Below, in pieces: positions 2,914 to 64,000 of a stretch of 64,000 nucleotides of DNA. Both the position numbers and the translations under genes were made by a program. The notes beneath the pieces were generated by a model. It saw only the letters and a program-made list of their open reading frames with translations. It did no database searches and was not told where the DNA came from. How positions within the stretch are numbered: the stretch's first letter is position 1; each line of letters begins with the position of its first letter. The DNA is from Limnomonas spitsbergensis (taxonomy: Eukaryota; Chlorophyta; Chlorophyceae; Chlamydomonadales), in NCBI GenBank assembly GCA_037349105.1, contig JAYJMM010000124.1, positions 6,122,001 to 6,186,000 of the forward strand, given 5' to 3'.

Positions 2914-4741
2914 TCAAATTGCATACAGGTGGTCCTTGCTCTGCACGTTTGCTTTCTCCGAAGTCTTCTTTACCAGTGTCTCGGATTCAGAAGTAGCGGC
3001 ATTCTTTTTTGGTGGTGGCATGCTGTGTTCCCCCAGAAGCATCATCCCACCTACAACATGAAAAACATATCTCGATCCTACGCTTGTGGCATGTCCTGGA
3101 TATGACGAATATGCTTGTGCATTGATGGCGATGAACGACGCAGATGATTATTGACCACTTGTAACATTATTTTCTCCTTGATAATCCTAAAAATATACAG
3201 AACTTACCAAGAAAAGACATGAACATGAGGTTGGGCAAGATGCTGCAGGTGTGTGTGTAGTATAAGATCACCTGCAATGGAGTGAAACATTCTTGATACC
3301 AAGGTACAAAACAGTATTGACCATACATAAAACATGAGTCAGCCTTGCTTACCACCATCAAGATCAGCCCCACAAACACCTGCATGATCATGGACAGTAA
3401 ACTTTGATGGAAGGGAGTAATGACACAATGCTGTTGGCTGCATGCCTTTTGTGTCAAGTAATTTTCGATAAATCATGTTACAGCTATGGGCTGATCTAAG
3501 TTGCCACTCCGAAGGATAAGTTTATCGATTTTCAATCATGAAGGCTTCAATGATCTTAAGGCTCCTGGATGCATTTGAAGGTCTTACTCAGAGACTCAGC
3601 CAAACAAATTTTGTTTTAAGAGCAAGCATTTCCTACGGGATGCTGATAATTTCTGTCCAGGACATCATACGGCCTTTACAGGCCAGTCAAGGCTATCAGT
3701 CGTGATATTATTCAAGCAAACAGCTTACCATTTTCACTGGGACGATAAAGCATCCAAGGCCCGCCAAGGTGACAACAGCACAGGCCGCAGACAGGATGCC
3801 GTAGTGGTTTCCTGCTGCCTTGCGCCATTCATCTTGGGCCTGCTCGCCGATCACCGTTTCTTGCCAAAGGCGATTGAAATGGCCGACACGTGTCCAATCA
3901 CATGCCCCATTAGTCCCCATGCACGATAACAGAACTTTTGATGCCTGCATTTCAGAGCTTCTGAAGTTTAGCTCCCGCATGGTACAGGGCATTTCGCATG
4001 ATATCTGCTGTTCTTGCCACTGACCTCCTTCACGACAGTGCCCGTGAAAAGCAAGGCTCTGAAGGCAGGCGTGATGGCTGGTATGAGCTCTGCCCCGACC
4101 AGGGCAGAAACTTCCAGTGGGGACAGCGGTTTACTGATGTTCTCCCCGCTGGAGTGCGATGTCAGCATGGTGTGAGTGGGGCTTTGCAGCAAAACTGAAG
4201 GGAGGGGACATCAGATTATTGAGACAAGAAATTGACATGCAGGGAGAGGCCCCTCAGTGCATTCCCTATGACCATTTTTCTACCAGGCCTACTCCAGAAT
4301 CTCTGCTGTTTGGTGGCCATGTGTTGTCTACACGCATCGAGTATGCCGGTAGTATGCGTAAACCTACCAAAAATCGATAAAGATAAACCGATAAGGCTGG
4401 CAGTAGAGCCTCTCTCGGCTTTCTTCGACTTCGTCACGCCATTGCTCTTTACTGCTTTGGGTGCAGTGGCCATCTTCACAATTGGACTCTGGACCTTCAC
4501 AGGCTTTTTGATGTTCACCATCACTGCAGGGCAAGAAAGAAAAGTAGGACAGCAGAAACAGGGACTGTACCCATTAGAATACGGCTACTAAAAACTGAGG
4601 CGACATTTCGCGACATTGTCTTCTTTCGGCTTCCACACAAGGGCAGGGTTCACGTTCCGAGGCATTCATACCTTGAGCTTGTGCAGGCCAGAACATTACA
4701 ATTCCTGCCTGCCTTTGTCTGTGCCAAATTTCCTTCACCAT
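2914..4741 (-). CDS. Spliced multi-pass membrane protein, function unknown
   Basis: Proposed exons on the minus strand: 4741-4672, 4523-4368, 4194-4025, 3944-3729, 3379-3353, 3271-3208 and 3050-2914 (TGA). All joins are GT-AG and keep phase, giving about 279 residues. Donors such as GTAAGC at 3728 and 3352 and acceptors such as ATGCAG at 3380 are strong. The first third is Lys-rich. The middle is soluble and helical, with a Trp/Gln-rich stretch. A block of three close hydrophobic segments is assembled across four exons (about residues 178-240). The C-terminus is a charged Lys/Ser tail. One exon is only 27 nt. The start is uncertain: an in-frame ATG also exists at 4834, and the next Met is at 4520. 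I do not recognise the family. It is divergent from SIN3 with about 106 bp between starts. Confidence 0.6.
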
Positions 4742-4847
4742 CTCGATATAAGGCAAAGCCTGGAGCTGGCAGATACATCCATATTTGCCACGCGGATAGC
4801 TGTGAAGGACTATTGGTCTGCGAACCCTCGCCACTGTAAAAGCAGCT
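4742..4847. promoter_or_regulatory. Probable bidirectional promoter, SIN3 and membrane-protein gene
   Basis: About 106 bp separates the SIN3 ATG (4848, +) from the proposed ATG of the minus-strand gene (4741). Such a short gap must hold both 5' ends and any core promoter elements, or the two transcripts overlap. No TATA box was recognised. If the minus gene starts at 4520, the shared region grows to about 330 bp, interrupted by a 5'-UTR intron. Confidence 0.45.
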
Positions 4848-12576
<7,729 letters not shown>

Positions 12577-50635: not shown

Positions 50636-53600
50636 TTAACGTGTATTGCAGCACGAAAATGACAGGAGGTATGCTGCAGCATCACCAGAAAGAAGAGAGC
50701 AATGTGTAGCTAACACAAGCTCAAGAAAGAACATTGGTTGTAGTGTCAATGTTATCCCAGTGGGCCTTGAGTGTGGCCCCTCTGCATCATGTGTGACCGA
50801 GGACTCAGGCTCCCATGAATTATGCTCATGGCCAAATGTTTTCCATTTGACCAAAAATTCATTGGATCGACGTGATTTTGATTTCTTACGATGATCCAAA
50901 ATCCGTTCGATGACGAAATTGGGTCCCCCATCAATCATGACAAGGTCCAGCGGCTGCACCCGCCCGTCAGTTTGAAATGGTTTGAGCTTGGATACATGAA
51001 AAACCGGGTGAATACGTAGAGTATCTGGTAAGAGGCGATTCACACCGGCGAACTGAATGTGGCAGTTGGTCGAAGTGAACCCACGCTATCTCGCGTTCCC
51101 AATCCGACCACGGGAGACCGATTCACACCAGATAAATTCGCCAAAGTGGCGTTCGTCGTTTCTGTTTCATTCAACATGGTACCTCCTCGTCAGTATCTGC
51201 TGCCAGTGTTGCTTTTTGCTGTTGCGAATCTAAACCAAACCACTTTAATTTAATCGCTGTCATCGCTTGGGCCGTCATTTCGAAAGGAGTGAGAGACGAA
51301 CGCACTCAACCACGCGATAAGAGGCAGCATGACAGGGACGAAAACAAACAGGATCGGAGGCAGATGGTCTTCGTAAAATTGCCAATGTGGCGAAAGTGGC
51401 CGACGCGAAGTGAATCTGGCTCAAAATGCCATATTCAGTTGGCGTCGCCAATCCGGCCCCAAAGTGGTTGTTTTGGCGAAGCGAACCCATGCCACTTTCG
51501 GAGCGAAAGTGACCAATCTGACCAATCCGACCCGGTGTGAATCGCCTCTAAATCAAGTTTGTATGCCAAGTTCGTGCCTTTGATAGTAGCGGAAATTGGG
51601 AAAGGTCCAATCCACTTATTAGGCAATAGTTTCGGAGTACTGCGCCGTCCAGCGGCTCTTTTTAAATGAATATGTTTAGTATTAGTTCAGGAGTACCATG
51701 TCCCCAATAGTATACGAAAGATCCCTGTGATGTTGGTCATTATAGAGTTTCTGACGCTGCAGAGCGGCAACGAGAAACTTTCTAGCCTCAGATAAACCTT
51801 CAGACATTTTATCTGCAAATGCTGAAGCGGTAGGTATTTTGGTACTTCCAGGCATAGCTGTAAGAGGGAGACGTGGATCACGTCCATGATTTAATCAAAA
51901 TGGAGTTGTACCAATAGATTCATCGTAAGAATTGGAATTGTTAATTGCAAATTCTGCAGTTGAGAAACAACTGTCCCATTCTTATGTTCGAGATGACCGA
52001 CATGATGCCTGATCATATCTTCCAATACTCGATTGACTCTTTCAGTTTGACCATCACTTTGAGGGTGAAATGCAGTAGATCGGCTGTGACTGGTACTGAT
52101 GATGCGAAGCAACTCGGTCCAGAATTTACCCGTAAATGCGGAGCCTCGATCCTAAACCATATCAAGGGGAAGGCCATGATGTTTCCAGACTGTATCCACA
52201 AAGAGCTGAGCTGTGCCCACACTGTCAATTGTGGATTTAGTAGGAGCAAAATGAACCATTTTGGTAAGTCGACAGACAAACACAATGATGGTATCAAAGC
52301 CTCTCCTTGTTTTGGGGAGCTGTTCAATAAAGTCCATGCTAACCGAGTCCCAAGGAGCTGCGGGTATGGTCAGGGGCTGTAATAAGCCTGCAGGTAGCTG
52401 GTTTGAACTTTTATTGCGTTGGCAGCAAGCACAAGTGGATATATAATTTTTAATATAGTCCTTAATTTGTGGCCACCAAAACATGCGAGTAACAGCTCTG
52501 TACGTTTTGGTAAAATCCCCGTGTCCACTGTATGGTGCATCGTGCATCGCATATAGATAGGATTTGTTTACGACTTTCATCGTCATGCGGGACCATCAGT
52601 TGATGTTTTTTCCACCACAAGCCATCTTTATGACTGAGTTTGTTTAGATTCTCAGGAAGTGCAAACCATGGATCATTGTCATAGCCGTGACGCAATAGTC
52701 GAGTGATATCTGTCACTATATCGGTACTAGGCATGATTTCTCCACGTGCTAAGACGTCAGAAATTTCAGTTTTTTCCGTCGTTAGATCTTCATTAATCTC
52801 CTCAACAATTGTCTCCAGATCTGGGGACCCCACAGTCTCCCGTCTGCGCTTCTTTTTGGAATAAGCTTCTGGTAGGATGAAGGTTTTACCTCTGGTCACT
52901 ATCATGGCCAAGGTACTGTTAAAAGATGGGTGGCGGGGCAAGGGATCCGCTACATTTGTAACGCCCTGCCGCCATTCCCATTTGAATTTAAAACGCTGCG
53001 AATATTCACTCCACCGACACCGTCTTCGCGAGAGTGTTGGCTGTGTTTGCAAATGAATGAGAGGATTATGATCAGTGATTACTTTAAAATCAATTCATTC
53101 CAAGTAGCAACGCCATGTTTTAAGAGGGTGGACTACGACCCATAATTCTTGGTCGCCGGTTGTCCAATTAAGTTCAGCGGAACTTAATTTACGGCTCTCA
53201 AAAGCGATGGGTCGGCCAAATTGAGTAACGACCGCCCCGATGCCCTGAATAGATGCATCGCAAATTACTTCCATTTCCACTGGATTGTTAATATCTGGCA
53301 TGGCCAGAACTGGGGCTGCAATTAAGGCTACTTTAACTTTTTCAAATGCTTGTTGGCAATTTGAAGTCCAGTTCCACTTTATGTCTTTTCTGGTTAAATG
53401 TGTCAGTGGTGCGACTATTGCCGCATACTGCGCAATGTGTTTGCGGAAATAATTTGTTAAACCATTAAAAGAACGAACTTCTTTTACGGTTGTTGGTACT
53501 GGCCAATGTTTAACGACCTCAACTTAAAGATGGGTCGACTTTTATGCCGTCTGTTCCCACTATATGGCCCAGGAATTTAATCTCTGGCCGCTTTAAGGTA

Positions 53601-53733: not shown

Positions 53734-53978
53734 TGTCGCACCATTAAGCAGGAAACGCGCCAATATGGTAAACTCCGTAATCTCCGGTAAAGGCGCCTTA
53801 GAGAGGTGTCCTTCTACTCATAAACACGGTACATCACCGTACACACAGGCTCCTTGTACTTCAGACAAGAGCTGTTAACTAGCTACTGTAAGGTTCAGCC
53901 CTAGCAGGAAGTCTCTCTGCCTAGGGGTAAGTCTGGGTGTCCCTGTCTCGTGGGTACCGCCCCTACTACTTCACTCGC
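53734..53978. repeat. 245-bp direct repeat, unit 1
   Basis: Nearly identical to 54607-54850 (only a handful of differences by eye), starting TGTCGCACCAT and ending TACTTCACTCGC. It adjoins the end of the chromovirus. The 873-bp spacing could reflect tandem LTR ends, an LTR-internal duplication or a solo LTR next to a full one. Confidence 0.9.
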
Positions 53979-54606
53979 GATGTGCGCTTCAGGTCCGTGG
54001 CGGACTTCTCCCTCACGACAGTGATGGGCGCCTACGGGCAGACTTCGTGACTACTCACTGGCTGCGGGTGCTCAACGAGTTAAGCTTCTAGATTTGTATT
54101 TGTATGTCAGGCAATAGCTAGGGTTGGCGCAGGCCTTCAGGCCGTCTGGTCGCGATCCAGCTGGGCAATATCAGGTGCACCTACCGCGTCACACGTGGTG
54201 AGGGTACGGGATCGTAGACTGCGAACTACTGTTCTGCAGGGATCTCGTTCCTCAACTGAGGCCTTGTTCTCCTGCTATCTCAGCGGAGGCTGATATAGTC
54301 TTGACTTGAAGTAGGTACTGACGTTTGGAACACCTCGGGTCTCACGCACTGGTGACGGCCGGAGCTTGTTACAGAAGAGGTCTGTCCTTTTGAAAGGGAC
54401 GAAGTAGCTAGTTTGGCTATTGCCAAGAAATATATTGAATCAGTAAACCCCAATTCAGAGTACGGGAAAGCTAAACCCCTGGCGTAAGCGGGTTTCTAGG
54501 TTCCTATTCAAATAAGGAGGATCCGCAGGGAAGCTGCGGAGCCTCCGTGGTCGCTAACTGCGGCCTAAACGGTTCTGGCACGTATACTGTAATATACCGT
54601 GACAGC

Positions 54607-54850
54607 TGTCGCACCATAAAGCAGGAAACGCGCCAATATGGTAAACTCCGTAATCTCCGGTAAAGGCGCCTTAGAGAGGTGTCCTTCTACTCATAAACAC
54701 GGTACATCACCGTACACACAGGCTCCTCGTACTTCAGACAAGAGCTGTTAACTAGCTACTGTAAGGTTCAGCCCTAGCAGGAAGTCTCTCTGCCTAGGGG
54801 TAAGTCTGGGTTTCCCTGTCTCGTGGGTACCGCCCTACTACTTCACTCGC
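54607..54850. repeat. 245-bp direct repeat, unit 2
   Basis: Second unit of the repeat. It is followed by CCCCCCCGCTCCTC, a string also seen near 17600 beside the retroelement relic. Confidence 0.9.
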
Positions 54851-54974
54851 CCCCCCCGCTCCTCTGCGTTAAGCCTATCGGGCATGCGCTGGGAGCCGGA
54901 AAAAGGGGTCGGTACTGTTAGGAAGAAATTTCTGGCAATATGTACACCTCAGAAGATCAAAGTCTCAAAGCAAA

Positions 54975-55603: not shown

Positions 55604-56449
55604 TCAGGTATCGGTGCACCCTTCAAGTGCCGATTCCTCCTCCTCCCTCGCTGCTTCTTTGGCCACCTTGGCCCGTCTGGCAACTGCCCTCGGGGTGACA
55701 TTGGCCTCTCCCCGGCCAGTGGTGTACGAGATGTCGTACAACCCGTTCGCCATTGGCCTTGCGATGCCCCGCTCCATTTGCCGCGTGGCCGGGTTGGTGG
55801 CCGTGACCTCCACCTCAGGCTTATCCATGATGTCGGCATCCGGGGCCGCCCTGGCTGCTGCTCTGGCAGCTGGGCTTGGCCGCCCCTGGACGGCTGCGCT
55901 GCGCTCTGGCTCTGCCGCGGGCCCTGCTATCTCAGCGGGCCCAGCGACCTTGTCGTCCGGCTGGCACCGTGGGCACAACCAATCGCCCTCAGGCACCTCA
56001 TCAAGTGCTGGTACCAAGCAATCCATGTGCCAACCCGCAACTGGCAGCGCCTCTTTGATCCTAGCCACTCTGGCCAGGAGCAGGTCCGCTGCCTCCTCTG
56101 CTGTTGCCACCTTGGCGGTGCTCCATAGGTCCGCCCCCACTCTGGAGGGGAACGTGGGTCTCTGCCCAAAAAGAACCTCGTAGGGCGCCATGCGCGTGGC
56201 CTGCTGCGGCGAGCAGCGAAAGCCCAGCGCCACCCATGGTACCATCTTGTCCCAGGAATCGTCGCTGCTGCCCTCCTGGCAGCATTTGCGCAGTCCTGTC
56301 TTGAGAGTCTGGACTGCCCTCTCGGACAGCTCGTCTGCCTGGTTCCTGCGCTGCATCGGCCCAATCTGCCGCAGCGGATTCTCCCAGGCACTGCCTGTAC
56401 GTCGCTGCCACCTCCCCACTGCCAGAGCATGCGTTCCCTGCAGTAGCAA
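55604..56449 (-). pseudogene. Integrase C-terminus with PHD-like tail
   Basis: Minus-strand frame of 281 codons. LSERAVQTLKTGLRKC holds the last catalytic Glu of a gypsy integrase. WVALGFRCSPQQATRMAPYE and LFGQRPTFPS are the usual post-core segments. Then GWHMDCLVPALDEVPEGDWL followed by CPRC is the C-terminal half of a PHD finger. An Ala/Arg-rich tail ends at 55604. The zinc-binding HHCC part and the first two catalytic Asp residues of the integrase are not found upstream in any frame. The frame also differs from the methyltransferase frame. The matching tail at 18913-19557 shows that the PHD-like segment is conserved in the family. Confidence 0.8.
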
Positions 56450-58898
56450 GGGCGTAGTGGCTGGACATTAAAGTTGCACCAAGCACAGGATCCCTGTCCT
56501 GGCCTGGCAACCGGGCTCTGCGCATCATTTCTTCCGGTAATATTTTGGCACACTCAAGTGCCACAGTGAACCACGCACTCAACGCCCACGAATCCATGCA
56601 CCTGCCCAAGGCTGCCCTCCTGGCAGCCTCTGGGAAGTCTGGTCGCGGCAACGTGGATCCTACAGCATACCCCATGGCACGTTCACGTTCATTTGCATTG
56701 GGCTCCTGCAGATCCCCCATGGGCCTGTACACCATCCCATTCTGCCCATTCCTGAAAGAATATGATGCGGGCGTCGCCATCAAGCAGGGCAGCACCCTCC
56801 TGGGCTGTCCTGTCACATTGATGCGATACCCTCCGTTGTCTGGACAGGCGACCACCTGGGCCCTGCTGCCCTTGTCCAGAATATCATCCACGACCCCCTC
56901 ATGGGGCCTGGTTGAAGCGCAAATTACAAACTCGATATCCTCAGACGGGGCTATGTTCCCCCAGTAGTTGCGGGTACGGTGGGCGTAAGACCCCACCTGT
57001 GCCGCATCAAACAGTGCAGGCGTCCCCAGGACCCTACACACTTCATTGAACCCATCTACACTGGCCTTGGTGCTCCTCTGATTCAGCTGCATCGCAACAT
57101 TCTCAATCAGGTATGCGGGCGGCCTGGACAATTGCAGGACCTGCAAAGTGCCCAACAGCTTGACCAGCGGAAAGAAGGACTTGCTTCGTTCCCCTGCCAG
57201 CCCGCGCCCCTTGCCTGCTGATGAGAGGTCCTGACACTCCCATCCAGCCACCATAAACCACTGGCGCCCATCCTGGGCGCCTGCTCCCCGGAGGTGCTCT
57301 GCCGTAATGGCGTACACATCCTGTGGTAGCGCTCTGAACACATCCTCAAACGCTTTCACTGGAAGCAGCTGGGGAAATCGCTTGTGCAACTGCACCAACC
57401 GACCCCCAGCAATCTCCCTCACTTCTTCGCTGATATCCGCATACAAATATCGCACCACTGGAATTCCTGCTTTGAGCACCATTTCCAGCCCAGAGCACAT
57501 ACCTCCAAAGGGCTCAAAGAGGACCACTCCTTCTTTCTCCATGGTCCGCACAGCCTGTACCGGCAGGCACGCTGTGTCCACCCCTGCGAGTGCGTGAGGC
57601 GGTGCAACCCGGGGAAGGTCAGACAGTACTTCGCTGATCATTGTCCTGGCTCTGTCCCGGCCACTGAACGCCTGTTCTGCCGTACTGACAGGCTGAGCCT
57701 GCTCATCATCCTCAGTGGCGGCAGAGGATATCTCCTGCCCAACCACGCCTGTCGCACAAGCTGCCTCTGCAGCCCGCAACAATTTCACCCCCCTTCGTCC
57801 TTCCTGTGCCATACGGACCAACTGGTCGGCATGCCACTGGTTAACCCTGCTCATCCCTGTGAGCATGGCTACCTGCATTCCGCTCTCCTCCCCCCTGACC
57901 ACCGGCTCTGATGCTACTGCATCTAGCCTAGCTCCTGTGCGGTCAGCGGAGGACGGGAGAGGTGACCTGGACGGAATGTCCGCATTCTGGTGGCATGCTC
58001 CAGAGCGGTGGACAATGGTAATGTCCAGCTCCTGGAGCATGAGTGCCCACCTAGCGTGCTGGCCAGCCAGCGTCTGGTTGTCCATGAGGTAGGTCAGCGG
58101 CTCATGGTCAGTGATGAGGTGCACCTTGCACTTAAACAGCATGTGACGGTACGTGCGCGCGGCATACACTGCAGCCAGCATCTCCCCCTGAAATGAGGAG
58201 TAGTTCTTCTCACTCTTGTTCAGGGATCTGGACGTGCATGCAACCATATATTCACGACCACTGTCATCGCACTGCCCTAGCACTGCGCCAATGCCCTGCT
58301 TAGAGAAGTCAGTGTACAGCAAGAAGGGCCTTGGCGGTCCTTTGCCATCTGGCCCCGTTCCACTGTAATCCGGCCTGCGCAGGACCCTACCGCCCTCGCA
58401 CATCTCTGTTTTGATCCGCTGGAACGCCTGCGACTGCTCTGGCCCCCACACAAACGGGACCCCCTTGACCAGCAATGCATTGATGCATGCTGCCTTCTTG
58501 GAGAAATCCGGAATGTAGCAGCGGTAGAAGTTCAGGAAGCCCATGACTTCCTGAATGTGCTTCACCGTTGCGGGCTCAGGCAGCGCCATAACCGCTGCAA
58601 CTTTAGCTGCATGCGGCGTGAGACCCTGGGCCGACACGTTGTGACCCAGGTATTCCACTGTCGCACACCCAAACAACGACTTGTCAGGGTGTGCCCTCAA
58701 CCCGACATTGTGGAGCATGTCCAGCATGAGCTCCACATGCTTGATGTGCTCTGCTGGTGTATCACTGTACACCAGCAGATCATCAATGAAAGCCACACAA
58801 AATGAACTCAGGCCCGCTCTGGCGATCTCCTCTTCCATCAATCTCTGGAAGAAAGGAGGCCCATTGCGCAGCCCAAATTGAGCTTGGTGTACATCCAC
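56061..58898 (-). CDS. Pol ORF: RT C-terminus, RNase H and DNMT3-like cytosine-C5 methyltransferase
   Basis: 945 codons. Residues 5-140 are RT from FGLRNGPPFFQ through the catalytic FIDD (37-40) to the thumb. RNase H spans about 190-310, with Asp197 (YTDFSKQGIGAV), Glu239 and Asp264 (TDHEPL). After a 140-residue acidic linker, residues 455-785 form a methyltransferase in normal motif order. Motif I is FEPFGGMCSGL (461-471). Motif II is ADISEE. Motif IV is GWECQDLSSAG with catalytic Cys555. Motif VI is IENV (598-601). Motif VIII is AHRTRNYWGN (639-648), very close to the AHRARYFWGN of DNMT3. Motif IX is near 701-712. A DNMT3-like ERERAMGY and LGRCMDSWAL form motif X. The usual Pro before the catalytic Cys is Glu here. 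Codons after about 800 are out of frame with the integrase and are probably spurious. Confidence 0.88.
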   Translation of the reverse strand: MDVHQAQFGLRNGPPFFQRLMEEEIARAGLSSFCVAFIDDLLVYSDTPAEHIKHVELMLDMLHNVGLRAHPDKSLFGCATVEYLGHNVSAQGLTPHAAKVAAVMALPEPATVKHIQEVMGFLNFYRCYIPDFSKKAACINALLVKGVPFVWGPEQSQAFQRIKTEMCEGGRVLRRPDYSGTGPDGKGPPRPFLLYTDFSKQGIGAVLGQCDDSGREYMVACTSRSLNKSEKNYSSFQGEMLAAVYAARTYRHMLFKCKVHLITDHEPLTYLMDNQTLAGQHARWALMLQELDITIVHRSGACHQNADIPSRSPLPSSADRTGARLDAVASEPVVRGEESGMQVAMLTGMSRVNQWHADQLVRMAQEGRRGVKLLRAAEAACATGVVGQEISSAATEDDEQAQPVSTAEQAFSGRDRARTMISEVLSDLPRVAPPHALAGVDTACLPVQAVRTMEKEGVVLFEPFGGMCSGLEMVLKAGIPVVRYLYADISEEVREIAGGRLVQLHKRFPQLLPVKAFEDVFRALPQDVYAITAEHLRGAGAQDGRQWFMVAGWECQDLSSAGKGRGLAGERSKSFFPLVKLLGTLQVLQLSRPPAYLIENVAMQLNQRSTKASVDGFNEVCRVLGTPALFDAAQVGSYAHRTRNYWGNIAPSEDIEFVICASTRPHEGVVDDILDKGSRAQVVACPDNGGYRINVTGQPRRVLPCLMATPASYSFRNGQNGMVYRPMGDLQEPNANERERAMGYAVGSTLPRPDFPEAARRAALGRCMDSWALSAWFTVALECAKILPEEMMRRARLPGQDRDPVLGATLMSSHYALATAGNACSGSGEVAATYRQCLGESAAADWADAAQEPGRRAVREGSPDSQDRTAQMLPGGQQRRFLGQDGTMGGAGLSLLAAAGHAHGALRGSFWAETHVPLQSGGGPMEHRQGGNSRGGSGPAPGQSG

Positions 58899-61216
58899 AG
58901 CTCCGGTCCCATCCAGAATGCCGTCTTAGGCTGGTCCTCAGCTTTGGTCGGTATCTGCATGAACCCCGACCTGAGGTCCACCTTACTGAATATCTTGGCC
59001 GTACCCAGGTTCTGAAAAATTGTCTCCATCCTGGGGATGGCAAACTCCTGCTTAGCCGTACGCAGGTTCAACCTGCGCATATCGTGCGCTATGCGGTGAT
59101 CAGTCCACTCGCCAGTCTCAGCGCTCTTCTTGGCCGCAACCACAGAGTTGGCTGCAAACTTGATGGGACCCCCTTGGGGCACCTTCACAATGATACCTGC
59201 CTGTATCATCGGCTGGCACTTCTCTTTTAAGATGGCAGCCTTTGGAGGCGGCATGTCCCGCGACTTCTGAAAGCACGAGCTGACCTCGTCTTCCAAAGCC
59301 AATGTAAACTCACCCTGCGTGCCGCAGTAGCCTGGCAGGTCTTCCATGGAGTAAGCGAATGCTCCCTGGCGGTCCCTGAGGCTCTGCTCGAGGGACGCCT
59401 GCTGCTCCTCCGTGAAGTCAGGGTGCTTGCCCAGCAGCCATCCTTCTTCAGTCTTGACATATTCCGAAGGTGGTTCCACCACACCCCCTGGCTGGAACAT
59501 GTCGATCATTTCTGCTGCCTGCGGATCATCCTCCGCGGCTGGTGCTTCCCCTTCGGCGCTGCTGTTGCGCTGCCATTCCTCCCGCTGGCTGTAAGCCCCT
59601 CCTGCCCTGCTGGCACCCCCCAAAGAGATGACAGCCGGCGGGCGCAGCCAGCCTGACGTAAGCTTTGCCGCAGCCTCCTGGCTGGACACAAAAGCACCCT
59701 GGTCTGCTGTAAATCCCCCTCCTCGGACTCCCTGCCCAGTGGCCCTTGCACCCGGGATGCACGCTGACAGCAGGAGCCACACGAGCATCAGCTGGAATGC
59801 ACCCGTAAGCACTCCCTTGAATGCCGTACAGTTCAGGAGTCCCCTGCATGCTGGCGGCTGCCGCACAACTTGCGGCTGTTGCCCTGCTGGTTGCGCCACT
59901 ATAGGTTCTGCAGGTGGCCCTGGCCTCAACTGCTCTGTGGCCCATGTGATCTCCAGCTCCACCTGACTGATCTTGCCTGGCTGGCAAGGGCAATCCTTGC
60001 CCGGCCTGCTGCCACGATCCCTGTCTGCAACCTTCCACTGCGCATTCCTTGCGCGGCGCCTAGCCTTTTTTGACTTCTTTCCCTGAAGCTCGGCTGTTTC
60101 CGCCATGGCTGCATCGGCCCCCACTGGCCACGCTTCTGACGGCTGTCCCCTGTGGTGCTTGGCCTGCTGCCCCTGCCTGCTGGCGTGGCGCGGCCCTCCG
60201 CTGCCGTCTGCACCTGCAGATCCTGCTGGTTCCTTGCACTTCTTCCTGTTGCTCCCAGCGTTGGCACGCTGCATAGCCCGGTAGTCCATTCCGCTGGATT
60301 GAGCTGGGTTGCGCCACTGCTCTGGCCACCCACGGATAGGCCTACCCTGGCCTGGCTGGACCCCGTCTGCATATGCCTGTGCCAACACTCTCCCAAAGAT
60401 TATAATCTGCGCCCGCTGGACTGCACACATAGATCCCTGCAAAGGCCCGTCGTCTGCGACCCTGTACCATTCTCTGATCAGCAGAGGGCGCCTGCCCTTG
60501 ACCTCAGCTACTGCCGCCTCACGCTCCCAACGCGCTTGCCTGGCTTGCTGCAGTTCCCCTGGCAAGTCCAACCCCTGGGCGGCCCGTAACACCGCAGCCC
60601 TTTCGCTGGGGAGCTCCTCTTCCCAGGCGCAATACCACCTGCAGCCTTCTGCCTTGTCTGCTGCCAACTGCCGCCTTCTGATGGCTCCCAAGGGCGTGTC
60701 CCCCTCTGGGCAGTCCTTGGTCTGGTGGCCACTCTGGGCGCAGATGAGGCACCTGCCTTCCATCCCCTCTGGGACTGGACAGGCGTGATAGTCGTGCCCA
60801 TGCTTGCCGCATCGCAGGCATGGCTCCCCGGTAGCTGACCCATGGCCCCAGGCTGGTTGCACCAAGTCACTGCATCTATGGCATGCCCACACTCCTCTGC
60901 GGGTGCCGCCAATGCCCTTAGTGCCGGCACACGCCTCGCAGGCTGTACCGCTACACTTGCAGCACTTCCTGCTGGTCCCTTCCTCTAAGCTGACCATGCA
61001 ACCCAGACACTTCTGGGGCATGTCTGCGCCATCCCCGCGCAGTGGCTCCCCGCTGACTGCGCTGCGGCTGGTTAGGCTGCAATGAAGCTCTCTTGGCTGC
61101 GCCCCCAGCCCGGCTCTCTGGCCCGGGCGGGTGTTGCACTGGCGCCTGGCTGCAGGCGGGTCTCTCCCGGCCATTGCTGCCTGCCGCCGCCTGCGCACCC
61201 CTGTCGCCCTGCTCAT
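58838..61216 (-). CDS. Pol ORF: zinc fingers, hydrophobic segment, RT N-terminal half
   Basis: 792 codons. Residues 70-115 are a Cys-rich finger of RING/PHD style (CLGC, CCKC, CEAC, W-x-C-x2-C). Two canonical CCHC zinc knuckles follow at 133-146 and 156-169 (C-x2-C-x4-H-x4-C). A Lys/Arg patch lies near 380-390. Residues 472-491 are strongly hydrophobic (LMLVWLLLSACIPGA), odd for a gypsy polyprotein. RT begins near 655 (LKEKCQPMIQAGIIV) and reaches the first catalytic Asp in SKVDLRSGFMQIP (Asp747). The frame then runs out at LNLGCAMGLLSSRD. The RT sequence resumes one base back in the next ORF (LN|FGLRNGPPFF), so a base has been lost in the AATTTGGG run, or translation must shift. No aspartic protease motif (D-S/T-G) was found. 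Confidence 0.82.
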   Translation of the reverse strand: MSRATGVRRRRQAAMAGRDPPAARRQCNTRPGQRAGLGAQPRELHCSLTSRSAVSGEPLRGDGADMPQKCLGCMVSLEEGTSRKCCKCSGTACEACAGTKGIGGTRRGVWACHRCSDLVQPAWGHGSATGEPCLRCGKHGHDYHACPVPEGMEGRCLICAQSGHQTKDCPEGDTPLGAIRRRQLAADKAEGCRWYCAWEEELPSERAAVLRAAQGLDLPGELQQARQARWEREAAVAEVKGRRPLLIREWYRVADDGPLQGSMCAVQRAQIIIFGRVLAQAYADGVQPGQGRPIRGWPEQWRNPAQSSGMDYRAMQRANAGSNRKKCKEPAGSAGADGSGGPRHASRQGQQAKHHRGQPSEAWPVGADAAMAETAELQGKKSKKARRRARNAQWKVADRDRGSRPGKDCPCQPGKISQVELEITWATEQLRPGPPAEPIVAQPAGQQPQVVRQPPACRGLLNCTAFKGVLTGAFQLMLVWLLLSACIPGARATGQGVRGGGFTADQGAFVSSQEAAAKLTSGWLRPPAVISLGGASRAGGAYSQREEWQRNSSAEGEAPAAEDDPQAAEMIDMFQPGGVVEPPSEYVKTEEGWLLGKHPDFTEEQQASLEQSLRDRQGAFAYSMEDLPGYCGTQGEFTLALEDEVSSCFQKSRDMPPPKAAILKEKCQPMIQAGIIVKVPQGGPIKFAANSVVAAKKSAETGEWTDHRIAHDMRRLNLRTAKQEFAIPRMETIFQNLGTAKIFSKVDLRSGFMQIPTKAEDQPKTAFWMGPELWMYTKLNLGCAMGLLSSRD

Positions 61217-63995
61217 CGCCTGAGCTAGCGCTGTCTGTTCCTACCCCCTGAATATTCAGATGCCAGGTGATATTGCTTGGTATCCACAATACCCCCTGCC
61301 CTTCTCGTGTTCTAACCCACTCTGCTAGCTGACGTTTTACCACCCTCAGGTTGAGGTAAATATCATCGGCGTACACCAGAGCTGCCTGCTCTGGTCCCCT
61401 GCCTCTGGCCCACTTGGCCGCACCTCTGAGTTGGCGCACCCTGCGGGCCAACCCAGTTTGCAGCTGTCTGATGGCTGCTTGAAACCCCACTTCCTGCAGA
61501 CCCGCTCCCTCCAGGAGCTCAGGCAGCATGCTCAAGTGCTCTTCTATGGTTCCGACGTTGTCCTCCTCAGGCTCTACCGCTGTCCCTTCAGCTTTCCTTA
61601 GCTGGTACTCCAGGACGCGCCTGGCAATCCTCAGGCCCTCCAGCTGCCTGTCCGACTGCGCTCTGGCATCGTCCAGGCCTTCCCCTGCTGAGAAGTCTTC
61701 TTCATTCCACACTGCAAACTCTCCGGTGCTGTCAGCACTGTTGCTGTTGCAAGTCAGCCGATGCGCGGCAACTTCCGCTGAAACCCCATCTATGAGGGCT
61801 ATCCTTCTGACGTCCAGCTCCTCCTTCAGGTCTTTCAGCGCCTGGTTGTACTGCCACTTCCTGGGATCTGGACTCGGCCCTGGCAGCACTCTGATCTTGT
61901 ACAGCAGGCTGGAATCTGCCGTGGTTGTGCTGCTGGCGACCAACTCTTGGCCTGCCTCATGCAGGCCCATCTCCTCCTTCCTCTGCTTATCAAGCTGCTC
62001 CACAAATTTCTTCAAGGTAGACTTCCAGCGCTGAGTGCTGTACATGGCAGGGTTCCCCCAGGGGTCCCTCGCCACTGGCTGCACCGGCTCACTCATTTGT
62101 CTGTCCCCTGAGCTGTCGCTGTTTGTCACGCCTTCCGCTGCGTCCCAGGAAGCTGCCATGAACTGGTCTGCAGCCTGCCGCGGGCTCACCCCCACTGCAG
62201 GCAGGCGCTCCCCCAGCTCAAACTCCCTATCGAGGTTGCGCCTTGTTTCCTCAATGGCGTCCCTCTCCCAATCTCCGTTGCTCATCCATTTTTGCCTCAG
62301 CTGCTCCATCGCCTCCTCGAGGCTCTGCCCTGGACTCTCTGGTCCTGGGTACGCGGAGGCTGGCTCCCCCGGCACGTCTGCACTCCTGGCCACTGGCCAG
62401 CCGATGCTGATCACGCCCACAGGCAGCTGGGGGCTGCTTGCCCCATACTCCCCATCTGACTCCGAGTCAGCCACCAGCGGTGGCAACCCCTCCAAGGGGT
62501 CGTCGCTCTCCCCGCTCGGTAGGCTCGTGTCCCACTGGCTTGGATCCTCCCCCTCGCGGAACCCCAGGTTCCTGCGGTCAGGGTGTCCTGCTACCAGTCT
62601 GCGTTCGCTGTTTGCCCTCAGAACGCTGGTTCCGCCGCAGCTACCGGAGAGTGTCCGGGGCTCTGCCTGGTCCCTGGGTTCCACTGCCAGCTCTGCCATT
62701 TCCAGCTCCTGGTCCATTGATTCTAGCCACTCCCACTCTGATGCCTTTGCACCCAGTGTAGTGACGAAAGCTGCCTGGAATGGCGCAAACGGCCCCGGCT
62801 GCTCTGCCGACTCCTGGGACCCGTCACTACTGTCAGGATTGGGGTCCCATCTGCGGGCACCCCACCTGCCGATCCTCCAGTGACCCAGCGCTGGCTGGTC
62901 CCTCAGCTCCACCAGCTCTTCCTCGTAGGTTCCTGATCCTACTCCCCGGAACAAGGGATGCAGCGTGCGCACCCCTGCTGGGTGTGCCTGCTTCCACAGC
63001 TGCACTGTCACGGCGTTAGCCTGCCAGTGTGGCGTTATGCTGCTGGCCCTGTCCTCCTGCCAGGCTTTCCTCTCCTTGCGCACCCACTGCTGCACGCAGT
63101 CCTCCAACCGTTCTAGCGCGAACGGCGAGCGAGCCAGCTCAAACTCCTCCTCCCACATGGATCCACTGTCGGACGCTGGTCTCGCCCCGTATGGCCATGT
63201 GGGGCAATCCATCTCCGCAGGTGCCCACTGCGCCCCAACACTCCACACATGCTGCATGGCTGCCGACATCTGTCCAGGCAGCATGGTCCTTTGCAGCACC
63301 ATCATCATGATGGTCCACACTGCGGGGTCTGCACCCCTTGCGTACTCGTGTGCATGGGCCTCTGCCTCATCCACATTGGCACACTTGACAATGGCTACGT
63401 TCTCCTCGCTCCTTTCAAAGAAGAACACCGGCAAGTCATTCCTGGAAGCGTGCATGTGGACCCACGCCTCTGACTCCGGGATCTCTCCCTCCTGCACCTC
63501 ATCATAGTAGTATGACACTACCCGCTGCACCGGGATGGCGGTCCTGGCATCCCCAGGCGCCAATCCCCACGGTACAGCCTGGCCTGTTACCACTCTGGGT
63601 ATGAGGATGGCTGCCTCAAGGATCTCCTCAACCCGCCTAGGCTTGCCTCCGTGGCAGAGCCCCGCGCCGTCGTAGGTTCCCTCGGTCGCCTCACTGCTCC
63701 TTCCATACGTCCCTGCGGCTACTGCCTGCACGGGCACGTAGAAGGCGCAGTCCCTCAGGCTGGGGTGTCCCAGCAAGCTGTGGGCGCAATGCTGCGCCCA
63801 AGGCGCACTCATAAATCCCAGCTGCGCCCCTTGCCACATTCCATCGGTGCGCACGCTGTCTGGCACCTCCCATCGTGCCATGTCTGCAGCATTCACTGCT
63901 GTTACTCCCTCTTGGCACGCCAGGTGCACAGCTCTGTCAACGCAGTGTGACCAGGTGGGGTGCCTCCACTCTTGCTGCATCAAATTGGCCATCAC
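60951..63995 (-). CDS. Gag-like ORF, 5' end outside the window
   Basis: 1,014 codons and still open at the window edge; ATG at 63992 is only a candidate start. The product is acidic to neutral, Gln/Glu/Trp-rich, with predicted helices and a Lys-rich coiled-coil-like part (TLKKFVEQLDKQRKEEMG). It is followed by further helices and an Arg/Gln/Pro-rich end. No capsid fold can be proved by eye. Position upstream of the zinc knuckles and RT makes gag likely. It overlaps the next ORF by 266 bp in another frame, which could be a natural gag-pol frameshift overlap or a mutation. It is very long for a gypsy gag. Confidence 0.65.
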   Translation of the reverse strand: MMANLMQQEWRHPTWSHCVDRAVHLACQEGVTAVNAADMARWEVPDSVRTDGMWQGAQLGFMSAPWAQHCAHSLLGHPSLRDCAFYVPVQAVAAGTYGRSSEATEGTYDGAGLCHGGKPRRVEEILEAAILIPRVVTGQAVPWGLAPGDARTAIPVQRVVSYYYDEVQEGEIPESEAWVHMHASRNDLPVFFFERSEENVAIVKCANVDEAEAHAHEYARGADPAVWTIMMMVLQRTMLPGQMSAAMQHVWSVGAQWAPAEMDCPTWPYGARPASDSGSMWEEEFELARSPFALERLEDCVQQWVRKERKAWQEDRASSITPHWQANAVTVQLWKQAHPAGVRTLHPLFRGVGSGTYEEELVELRDQPALGHWRIGRWGARRWDPNPDSSDGSQESAEQPGPFAPFQAAFVTTLGAKASEWEWLESMDQELEMAELAVEPRDQAEPRTLSGSCGGTSVLRANSERRLVAGHPDRRNLGFREGEDPSQWDTSLPSGESDDPLEGLPPLVADSESDGEYGASSPQLPVGVISIGWPVARSADVPGEPASAYPGPESPGQSLEEAMEQLRQKWMSNGDWERDAIEETRRNLDREFELGERLPAVGVSPRQAADQFMAASWDAAEGVTNSDSSGDRQMSEPVQPVARDPWGNPAMYSTQRWKSTLKKFVEQLDKQRKEEMGLHEAGQELVASSTTTADSSLLYKIRVLPGPSPDPRKWQYNQALKDLKEELDVRRIALIDGVSAEVAAHRLTCNSNSADSTGEFAVWNEEDFSAGEGLDDARAQSDRQLEGLRIARRVLEYQLRKAEGTAVEPEEDNVGTIEEHLSMLPELLEGAGLQEVGFQAAIRQLQTGLARRVRQLRGAAKWARGRGPEQAALVYADDIYLNLRVVKRQLAEWVRTREGQGVLWIPSNITWHLNIQGVGTDSASSGDEQGDRGAQAAAGSNGRERPACSQAPVQHPPGPESRAGGAAKRASLQPNQPQRSQRGATARGWRRHAPEVSGLHGQLRGRDQQEVLQV

Positions 63996-64000
63996 CGTGC

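What the first reader, a model, noticed from the sequence alone, without database searches (positions are those of the whole stretch)
56544..57536. A DNMT3-like cytosine methyltransferase is built into a gypsy-like retrotransposon polyprotein
The same open frame runs from RT and RNase H into a full C5-methyltransferase domain with motifs I, II, IV, VI, VIII, IX and X in canonical order. AHRTRNYWGN and LGRCMDSWAL are very close to DNMT3. From memory, capture of cytosine methyltransferases by retrotransposons has been reported in a dinoflagellate and a charophyte alga. An example in what looks like a chlorophyte Ty3/gypsy element, sited between RNase H and integrase, would be a further or independent capture. 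The element could methylate its own or host DNA, for silencing, self-regulation or protection of cDNA.
Basis: partly seen in the sequence, partly recalled or inferred. Interest (0 to 1): 0.9.

Follow-up and report, generated by a model that had tools for sequence, protein, structure and literature searches.

The report
Jumping gene carrying a DNA-methylating enzyme
A eukaryotic genome, probably of a green alga, holds many copies of a very large retrotransposon whose giant protein includes an enzyme of the type that methylates DNA, so a genomic parasite carries the kind of tool that hosts use to silence such parasites; a close precedent is known from an alga related to land plants.

Summary
One frame (window 58925-56064, minus) runs from RT/RNase H into a DNMT3-type cytosine methyltransferase by sequence, profile and predicted fold. 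It is no artefact: the genome has two DNMT-gypsy families, five copies were read with one intact frame of 5291-5315 codons, and the DNMT is under purifying selection like RT. The window copy is defective (RT frameshift, two deletions across integrase and PHD). Relatives in Monoraphidium, Haematococcus, Closterium and metagenomes carry DNMT between RNase H and integrase or before RT; DNMT and RT/IN divergence correlate, so an old lineage is likelier than a fresh capture. Precedent: KnitGypsy-Dnmt3 (PMC5890265), with the same DIRS-like A-coding-B-A-B repeats. Added here: ends TGTC...GACA with 4-bp target duplications in 6 of 6 copies; a GACA-GC-TGTC palindrome at the internal B|A junction; a 22-nt self-complement between the site after A1 and a segment inside A; a PHD finger after integrase. 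I read it as a self-primed gypsy element that integrates from a circle-like form and whose DNMT methylates its own cDNA. That role is inferred. The host species was not identified.

The parts
53734..53978 (-). terminal repeat B2, 3' end of element (ends ...GACA, followed by TSD TAAG)
53976..54604 (-). repeat A2 (starts TGTCAC); A1 starts beyond the window end, 9088 bases past position 64000; A1/A2 98.9% identical
54601..54610 (-). B1|A2 junction palindrome GACA-GC-TGTC (GC at 54605-54606)
   Evidence: same in 6 of 6 copies
54607..54850 (-). repeat B1
54851..54864 (-). polypurine-tract-like run just upstream of B1
   Evidence: read by eye; same place in the C38 copy
55964..56032 (-). partial PHD finger
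   Evidence: PF00628 3e-4, positions 23-47, below the cut-off; complete in the C38 copy
56028..56342 (-). integrase remnant (later part of the core); zinc-binding part and start of the core deleted
56562..57533 (-). DNMT3-type C5-methyltransferase domain; catalytic Cys codon 57236-57234, ENV Glu codon 57104-57102
58029..58334 (-). RNase H domain
   Evidence: PF17917, residues 198-299
58635..58880 (-). C-terminal half of reverse transcriptase, same frame as the DNMT
   Evidence: RVT_1 residues 16-97
58859..58877 (-). frameshift that splits RT in this copy
   Evidence: tblastn of the C38 frame changes frame here
58901..59098 (-). N-terminal half of reverse transcriptase, other frame
   Evidence: protein 2 residues 715-780 (RVT_1 1.4e-4, below the cut-off)
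60954..64000 (-). frame of the upstream part of the polyprotein (unassigned, N-terminal of RT), runs on past the window; 60193-61724 has no DNA-level counterpart in copy C38

Best explanation
The DNMT is a working part of a large Ty3/gypsy-type retrotransposon. Shown by sequence: one 5.3-kilocodon frame with two zinc knuckles (the first below Pfam's cut-off) - RT - RNase H - DNMT3-type methyltransferase - DDE integrase - PHD finger, flanked by A1 and B1-A2-B2 repeats. Inferred cycle: RNA starts inside A1; its 5' part pairs with the site just after A1 and primes minus-strand synthesis; the cDNA carries B-A repeats; circles (or tandems) form; integrase cuts at the internal GACAGCTGTC palindrome and inserts with a 4-bp duplication. 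Inferred role: the DNMT, made in the same polyprotein as RT and integrase, methylates the element's own cDNA or fresh copy in cis, and the PHD finger reads a histone mark at the target. That the domain is a DNMT3-type part of the element: about 0.95. That it is catalytically active: about 0.75. That cDNA or new copies are the main substrate: about 0.5.
For: Five sister copies with an uninterrupted frame of 5291-5315 codons and repeat pairs 99.6-100% identical; domains of one of them, C38. Purifying selection on DNMT: family A omega median 0.082 (103 of 105 pairs, 15 copies), window against the 14 others 0.047-0.064; family B median 0.084 (36 pairs, 9 copies); in five intact copies RT-RH 0.040, DNMT 0.047, IN 0.009. 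Catalytic residues kept. TGTC...GACA ends with 4-bp TSD in 6 of 6 copies; removing element and one TSD restores the interrupted RT frame of a neighbouring gypsy-type element. 22-nt complement with 0 mismatches in 5 of 6 and 1 in 1 of 6, with a paired change in the diverged window copy; in C38 the longest exact complement is 24 against at most 11 in 500 shuffles of single bases. CG methylation by SymbioDIRS-Dnmt3 DNMTs was demonstrated by others (PMC5890265, abstract and discussion).
Against: Motif IV is ECQ-like in 51 of 73 domains and has Pro in 17; how the change affects catalysis is unknown. No methylation, RNA or protein data. PMC5890265 (discussion) reports that a SymbioLINE DNMT did not methylate DNA in yeast and notes that retrotransposons without a DNMT also transpose. 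CpG transitions among intact copies are raised (0.142 against 0.074 per site), but so are transversions (0.054 against 0.030), so there is no specific deamination signal; element CpG obs/exp (0.56-0.59) is close to the rest of the window (0.59-0.62) and the copies' flanks (0.58-0.75). PHD is under weak constraint (0.26). The 22-nt stretch is itself an imperfect palindrome, which makes pairing easier to arise; the five intact copies are close relatives, so the 6 of 6 are not independent.
Confidence: 0.55

Rival explanations
1. The DNMT acts mainly on host chromatin or on existing copies: it writes silencing marks at insertion sites, which limits damage and keeps the element tolerated (self-restraint), with the PHD finger as guide.
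For: PHD finger follows the integrase in 45 of 49 rows that have an integrase and no DNMT ahead of RT, and in 0 of 7 with DNMT ahead of RT (my count from the table). The genome stretches examined are CpG-depleted with TpG/CpA excess in element and surroundings alike. PMC5890265 discussion lists slowed retrotransposition as a possibility.
Against: No methylation data; the PHD is weakly constrained within family A; a domain that restrains its own element should be lost easily, yet it is kept (inference).
Confidence: 0.25
2. The domain has lost catalysis and serves as a DNA-binding or assembly module in the integration complex, as DNMT3L does for DNMT3A.
For: Pro of motif IV replaced by Glu in 51 of 73 members, by Met in family B.
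Against: Catalytic Cys kept in 72 of 73 (Tyr in P0060), ENV Glu in 73 of 73, AHRxR His and Arg in 73 of 73; DNMT3L lacks catalytic residues (recalled).
Confidence: 0.12
3. Assembly error or chance insertion of a separate DNMT locus into a gypsy element.
For: None found; only that the window copy itself is broken.
Against: Copies on different contigs, 4-bp TSDs at the outer ends, same order in proteins from other genomes and metagenomes.
Confidence: 0.01
4. The DNMT was captured separately here, not inherited from an old DNMT-gypsy lineage shared with Klebsormidium or Closterium elements.
For: The DNMT sits at different places (between RNase H and integrase, or ahead of RT), which could mean separate captures.
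Against: DNMT and RT distances correlate (r 0.82, 32 proteins; 0.69 within the 24 RT-first ones), DNMT and IN too (0.82, 48); ECQ motif occurs in both arrangements; repeat layout equals that of KnitGypsy-Dnmt3.
Confidence: 0.25

Closest known systems
KnitGypsy-Dnmt3 of Klebsormidium nitens (PMC5890265; abstract, sections 6, 9 and 11 and found passages seen)
   Same: Gypsy-type element, Dnmt3 domain inside the Pol frame, intronless, several copies, purifying selection on the DNMT, repeats laid out as in DIRS elements (A-coding-B-A-B).
   Different: Here a 5.3-kilocodon frame and a PHD finger after integrase (the word PHD does not occur in that paper's main text; its figures were not seen); TSDs, junction palindrome and self-complement documented here. 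No Klebsormidium sequence was at hand for a direct comparison.
SymbioDIRS-Dnmt3 and SymbioLINE-Dnmt of Symbiodinium (PMC5890265)
   Same: Retrotransposon proteins with a C5-methyltransferase; SymbioDIRS has Dnmt3 and split repeats.
   Different: Tyrosine recombinase (DIRS) or LINE machinery; here a DDE integrase with 4-bp TSDs.
DIRS/PAT elements
   Same: A-coding-B-A-B split repeats.
   Different: DIRS use a tyrosine recombinase and make no TSD (recalled); here DDE integrase and TSD.
Tf1-type self-primed gypsy elements of fission yeast (recalled)
   Same: Site after the 5' repeat is complementary to a segment of the element's own upstream repeat.
   Different: Complement is 22-25 nt here against 11 nt in Tf1 (recalled); whether it lies at the RNA 5' end is unknown.
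DNMT3A/DNMT3B
   Same: Best sequence, profile and structural matches.
   Different: About 24% identity in the structural alignment, ECQ motif IV, part of a polyprotein; no PWWP or ADD domain was reported by Pfam.
DAM- and DCM-encoding Ty3/gypsy and DIRS retrotransposons listed by PMC6338049 (passages seen)
   Same: That paper names green algae and charophytes among carriers of such elements.
   Different: No element or sequence is described in the passages seen.

Membership tests
Gypsy-Dnmt3 elements (KnitGypsy-Dnmt3 type) | Gypsy RT, RNase H and DDE integrase | tested here: met
Gypsy-Dnmt3 elements (KnitGypsy-Dnmt3 type) | Dnmt3-class domain in the Pol frame | tested here: met
Gypsy-Dnmt3 elements (KnitGypsy-Dnmt3 type) | DIRS-like A-coding-B-A-B repeats | tested here: met
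   (family A only)
Gypsy-Dnmt3 elements (KnitGypsy-Dnmt3 type) | Purifying selection on the DNMT between copies | tested here: met
Gypsy-Dnmt3 elements (KnitGypsy-Dnmt3 type) | Common descent with the Klebsormidium elements | not tested
   no protein named as Klebsormidium among the hits
DNMT3 methyltransferases | Closer to DNMT3 than to other C5-MTases | tested here: met
   (PDB proteins only)
DNMT3 methyltransferases | Catalytic Cys, ENV Glu, motif VIII Arg | tested here: met
DNMT3 methyltransferases | PC dipeptide of motif IV | tested here: not met
   EC in the window and in 51 of 73 domains; Pro in 17
DNMT3 methyltransferases | Position in a tree with host DNMT3s | not tested
   no host DNMT3 sequences obtained; one search returned only proteins of 176-598 aa
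DIRS-type (tyrosine recombinase) retrotransposons | Tyrosine recombinase | tested here: not met
   Pfam on the C38 frame found H2C2 and rve integrase, no phage-type integrase; other frames of the element were not scanned
DIRS-type (tyrosine recombinase) retrotransposons | No target-site duplication | tested here: not met
   4-bp TSD in 6 of 6
Chromoviruses | Chromodomain after integrase | tested here: not met
   PHD finger and no chromodomain match in the C38 copy
Self-primed (Tf1-like) gypsy elements | Primer site complementary to own RNA | tested here: met
   at DNA level
Self-primed (Tf1-like) gypsy elements | Primer is the RNA 5' end | not testable with these tools
   no transcript data

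The most novel reading that the evidence does not exclude
This is a widespread, ancient green-lineage branch of Ty3/gypsy with its own life cycle: self-primed cDNA with B-A repeats, closed into a circle or tandem, opened by a DDE integrase at an internal GACAGCTGTC palindrome, so that the integrated form is rotated relative to the reverse-transcription product; and a DNMT3 captured once before chlorophytes and streptophytes split that methylates this intermediate and has stayed under selection since.
Probability: 0.3. Interest if true: 0.82.

Novelty: new variant of a known kind. Interest (0 to 1): 0.58.

Why it matters
Cytosine methylation is a host weapon against transposons. A transposon lineage that has carried its own DNMT3 through long divergence, with the active site under constraint, suggests that methylation can serve the parasite. 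Intact, nearly identical copies beside older ones make it directly testable by long-read methylation calls in one strain. The DDE-integrase-plus-split-repeat layout, with exact ends and an internal palindrome, also offers a testable case of integration from something other than a plain linear LTR cDNA.

Tried and rejected
Chance or assembly artefact: rejected by sister copies on several contigs, TSDs and relatives. Deamination footprint of methylation: tried, inconclusive. Second methyltransferase in family B: the stretch after the PHD of family B and of P0008 has FDPTAGRG- and NPP-like motifs that suggested an N6-adenine methyltransferase to me; a PDB search with the P0008 tail gave only two matches at E 1.2 to an unrelated enzyme and Pfam listed nothing there, so it stays unassigned. 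Relatives in viral and prokaryote contigs: 21 and 16 loci, 27-41% identity over partial stretches; all 16 prokaryote records are titled as bacteria or bacterial MAGs, the 21 others are IMG/VR contigs; I looked at the tables only, not at the loci. Host DNMT genes: L001-L003 look viral-type by eye, L004/L007/L008 share one repeated motif, L005/L006 were not resolved; no host DNMT3 was identified or excluded. Host species: not identified. Literature: seven searches; none of the listings or passages that I saw describes a chlorophyte gypsy-DNMT3 element, but most papers listed were not opened, and most subscription journals are not held.

Rows dropped or chosen: the 20 stretches were picked by me from the table to sample both profile-range groups, so the 10 to 10 split between families is no estimate of abundance. 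Family A dN/dS used 15 of 16 copies (L035 has a stop); family B used 9 of 11 (L045 and L047 left out, partial matches); 103 of 105 family A pairs passed the dS filter. The DNMT tree used 73 domains of 240 residues or more from the proteins plus P0001, P0035 and C38; shorter domains were left out, and the extra proteins were not added. The RT tree used 32. One search scored only the 8000 candidates sharing most words.

Full report
WHAT IS THERE. The window lies at G000:C124:6122001-6186000 of a 260.2-Mb, 124-contig assembly. On the minus strand a frame of 954 codons, window 58925-56064, holds the C-terminal half of RT, RNase H and a C5-methyltransferase: Pfam RVT_1 1.7e-13, RT_RNaseH 6.1e-30, RT_RNaseH_2 2.3e-21, DNA_methylase 1.7e-5, all above the curated cut-offs. 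The methyltransferase covers residues 465-788 of the frame. In relatives Pfam's general methylase model is often weaker: of the six scanned, three fall below its cut-off, two show no match and one passes.

INTACT SISTER COPIES. Five copies on five contigs have one uninterrupted frame (C26 5315, C38 5291, C27 5291, C35 5291, C4 5307 codons), flanked by repeats A (about 640 bp) and B (233 bp) in the order A1 - frame - B1 - A2 - B2, A pairs 99.7-100% and B pairs 99.6-100% identical. One of the five (C38) was scanned: zinc knuckle (0.0023, below the cut-off), second zinc knuckle (4e-5), RVT_1, RNase H, DNA_methylase 2.7e-5, Integrase_H2C2, rve, PHD. Read by eye, a DSA-type motif after the first zinc knuckle may be the protease. 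The PF00145 search of the whole genome scored 123 of 665 candidates; by my count 12 rows lie in frames of 5000 codons or more and 9 in frames of 2251-2253; not all of these rows were checked to be gypsy elements. The window copy is not among the 123, so counts are lower bounds. Twenty further stretches, picked by me to sample both groups of hits, fall into two families: A, the window's (10), and B (10), about 41% identical in the domain, with motif GFMCTDLS in B. A family B frame has DNMT - H2C2 - rve - PHD.

THE WINDOW COPY. It spans window 53734 to 9088 bases beyond the window end, minus strand. RT is split by a frameshift near 58859-58877. Relative to the C38 copy about 0.8 kb (linker after the DNMT, zinc-binding part and start of the integrase core) and about 0.4 kb (integrase end to mid-PHD) are missing, and about 1.5 kb at 60193-61724 has no DNA-level counterpart. 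Its A1/A2 are 98.9% and B1/B2 98.4% identical. So the DNMT frame is open here, but the copy cannot make the normal polyprotein.

SELECTION. Family A DNMT: 15 copies, 103 of 105 pairs, omega median 0.082 (0.027-0.274); window against each of the 14 other copies 0.047-0.064 at dS 0.78-1.22. Family B: 9 copies, 36 pairs, median 0.084. In the five intact copies (ratio of means): IN 0.009, RT-RH 0.040, DNMT 0.047, linker between RNase H and DNMT 0.154, N-terminal part 0.166, PHD 0.262, residues 1500-3500 0.312. The DNMT is constrained like RT, less than IN.

ENDS AND CYCLE. In all six copies (five intact plus the window's) the element begins TGTC at the start of A1 and ends GACA at the end of B2, with 4-bp duplications CACC, CCCA, AGAA, ACAG, TGGT and TAAG, read by eye from the printed flanks. 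Taking out the window element and one TAAG restores a continuous RT frame with YLDD in another gypsy-type element. In all six the internal B1|A2 junction reads GACA-GC-TGTC, a perfect palindrome formed by the two element ends around GC. A purine-rich run precedes B1. The 22 nt just after A1 are complementary to A positions about 205-226: no mismatch in 5 of 6, one in C4; the diverged window copy keeps pairing through a change on both sides; MFE folds of the A-to-site stretch form 20-21 of the 22 pairs; in C38 the longest exact complement (24) was not approached in 500 single-base shuffles (maximum 11). I infer self-priming, cDNA with B-A repeats, and opening of a circular or tandem form at the palindrome, because a rotation by one B turns BA-coding-BA into the integrated A-coding-B-A-B. 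None of these steps was observed, and the repeats of family B and of the metagenome relatives were not examined.

RELATIVES. Three protein searches returned 30, 51 and 57 proteins. Named sources include Monoraphidium neglectum, Haematococcus lacustris and Closterium NIES-53, NIES-54 and NIES-65; the Monoraphidium and Haematococcus proteins are gappy in the domain; one hit is named as an Obscuribacterales MAG protein on a 2410-base contig (P0084). Two main arrangements exist: RT-RH-DNMT-IN, with PHD in 45 of 49 rows that have an integrase and no DNMT ahead of RT, and DNMT-RT-RH-IN, with PHD in 0 of 7 (my count). In the RT tree the 24 RT-first and 8 DNMT-first proteins are separated by one branch (99/98). 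In the DNMT tree (73 rows) 16 rows (11 DNMT-first, 5 without RT in the protein) separate from 57 others (98/96), with P0010 (DNMT-first) nested among the 57, which implies at least one relocation. Pairwise DNMT distances correlate with RT (r 0.82, 32 proteins; 0.69 in 24 RT-first) and IN (0.82, 48; 0.75 in 42), permutation p 0.001 each. This fits long joint descent; it does not prove a single capture.

RESULTS AGAINST OR NEUTRAL. No deamination footprint specific to CpG was seen. The A repeat is not CpG-depleted (0.88-0.92) while the whole element is (0.56-0.59), but it is only 640 bp. The PHD is weakly constrained. The host is unidentified, and no host DNMT3 was found or excluded.

COMPARISON WITH PRINT. 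PMC5890265 (abstract, sections 6, 9, 11 and found passages seen) reports KnitGypsy-Dnmt3 in Klebsormidium, a gypsy element with Dnmt3 in Pol, purifying selection and repeats like those of DIRS, and DNMT-bearing DIRS and LINE elements in Symbiodinium; it shows de novo CG methylation by retrotransposon DNMTs, though not by the SymbioLINE one tested, and proposes cDNA methylation. [quoted passage not shown] PMC6338049 (passages seen) names green algae among hosts of DAM/DCM-encoding gypsy and DIRS elements. The capture itself is therefore a known kind; the added points are this genome, the relatives in chlorophyte and Closterium proteins, the giant frame, the PHD, and the exact end, junction and self-complement anatomy.

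VERDICT. Real, not ordinary, with a close precedent. Identity as a DNMT3-type part of a gypsy Pol about 0.95; catalytic activity about 0.75; cDNA or fresh copies as main substrate about 0.5.

Noticed in passing
window 50636-53523 (-) and flanks of the element: Remains of a second gypsy-type element (RT, RNase H, integrase-like and a chromodomain-like stretch, read by eye); the DNMT element is inserted in its RT just before YLDD.
   Followed up: partly
L010 (C124:6194001-6204000), 4663-10000: A partial copy of the window element with the same RT frame break, about 18 kb away: probably a local duplication.
   Followed up: partly
window 60193-61724: About 1.5 kb of the window copy without a DNA-level counterpart in copy C38.
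   Followed up: no
L001, L002, L003: C5-methyltransferases of giant-virus look (beside an S74-like tail protein; with HMG-box-like tails), which suggests endogenous giant-virus DNA in this genome; judged by eye only.
   Followed up: no
L004, L007, L008: Repeated short methyltransferase fragment (GFPCIGFSLVSKREGYNNEESGLF...) at several loci, outside gypsy families A and B.
   Followed up: no
P0035 residues about 1250-1500 (L011), tails of P0007 and P0008: Stretch after the PHD with FDPTAGRG- and NPP-like motifs, possibly a second methyltransferase; no meaningful Pfam or PDB match.
   Followed up: partly
repeat A of all six copies: Not CpG-depleted (obs/exp 0.88-0.92) while the element as a whole is 0.56-0.59; it may be a promoter that escapes methylation.
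   Followed up: partly
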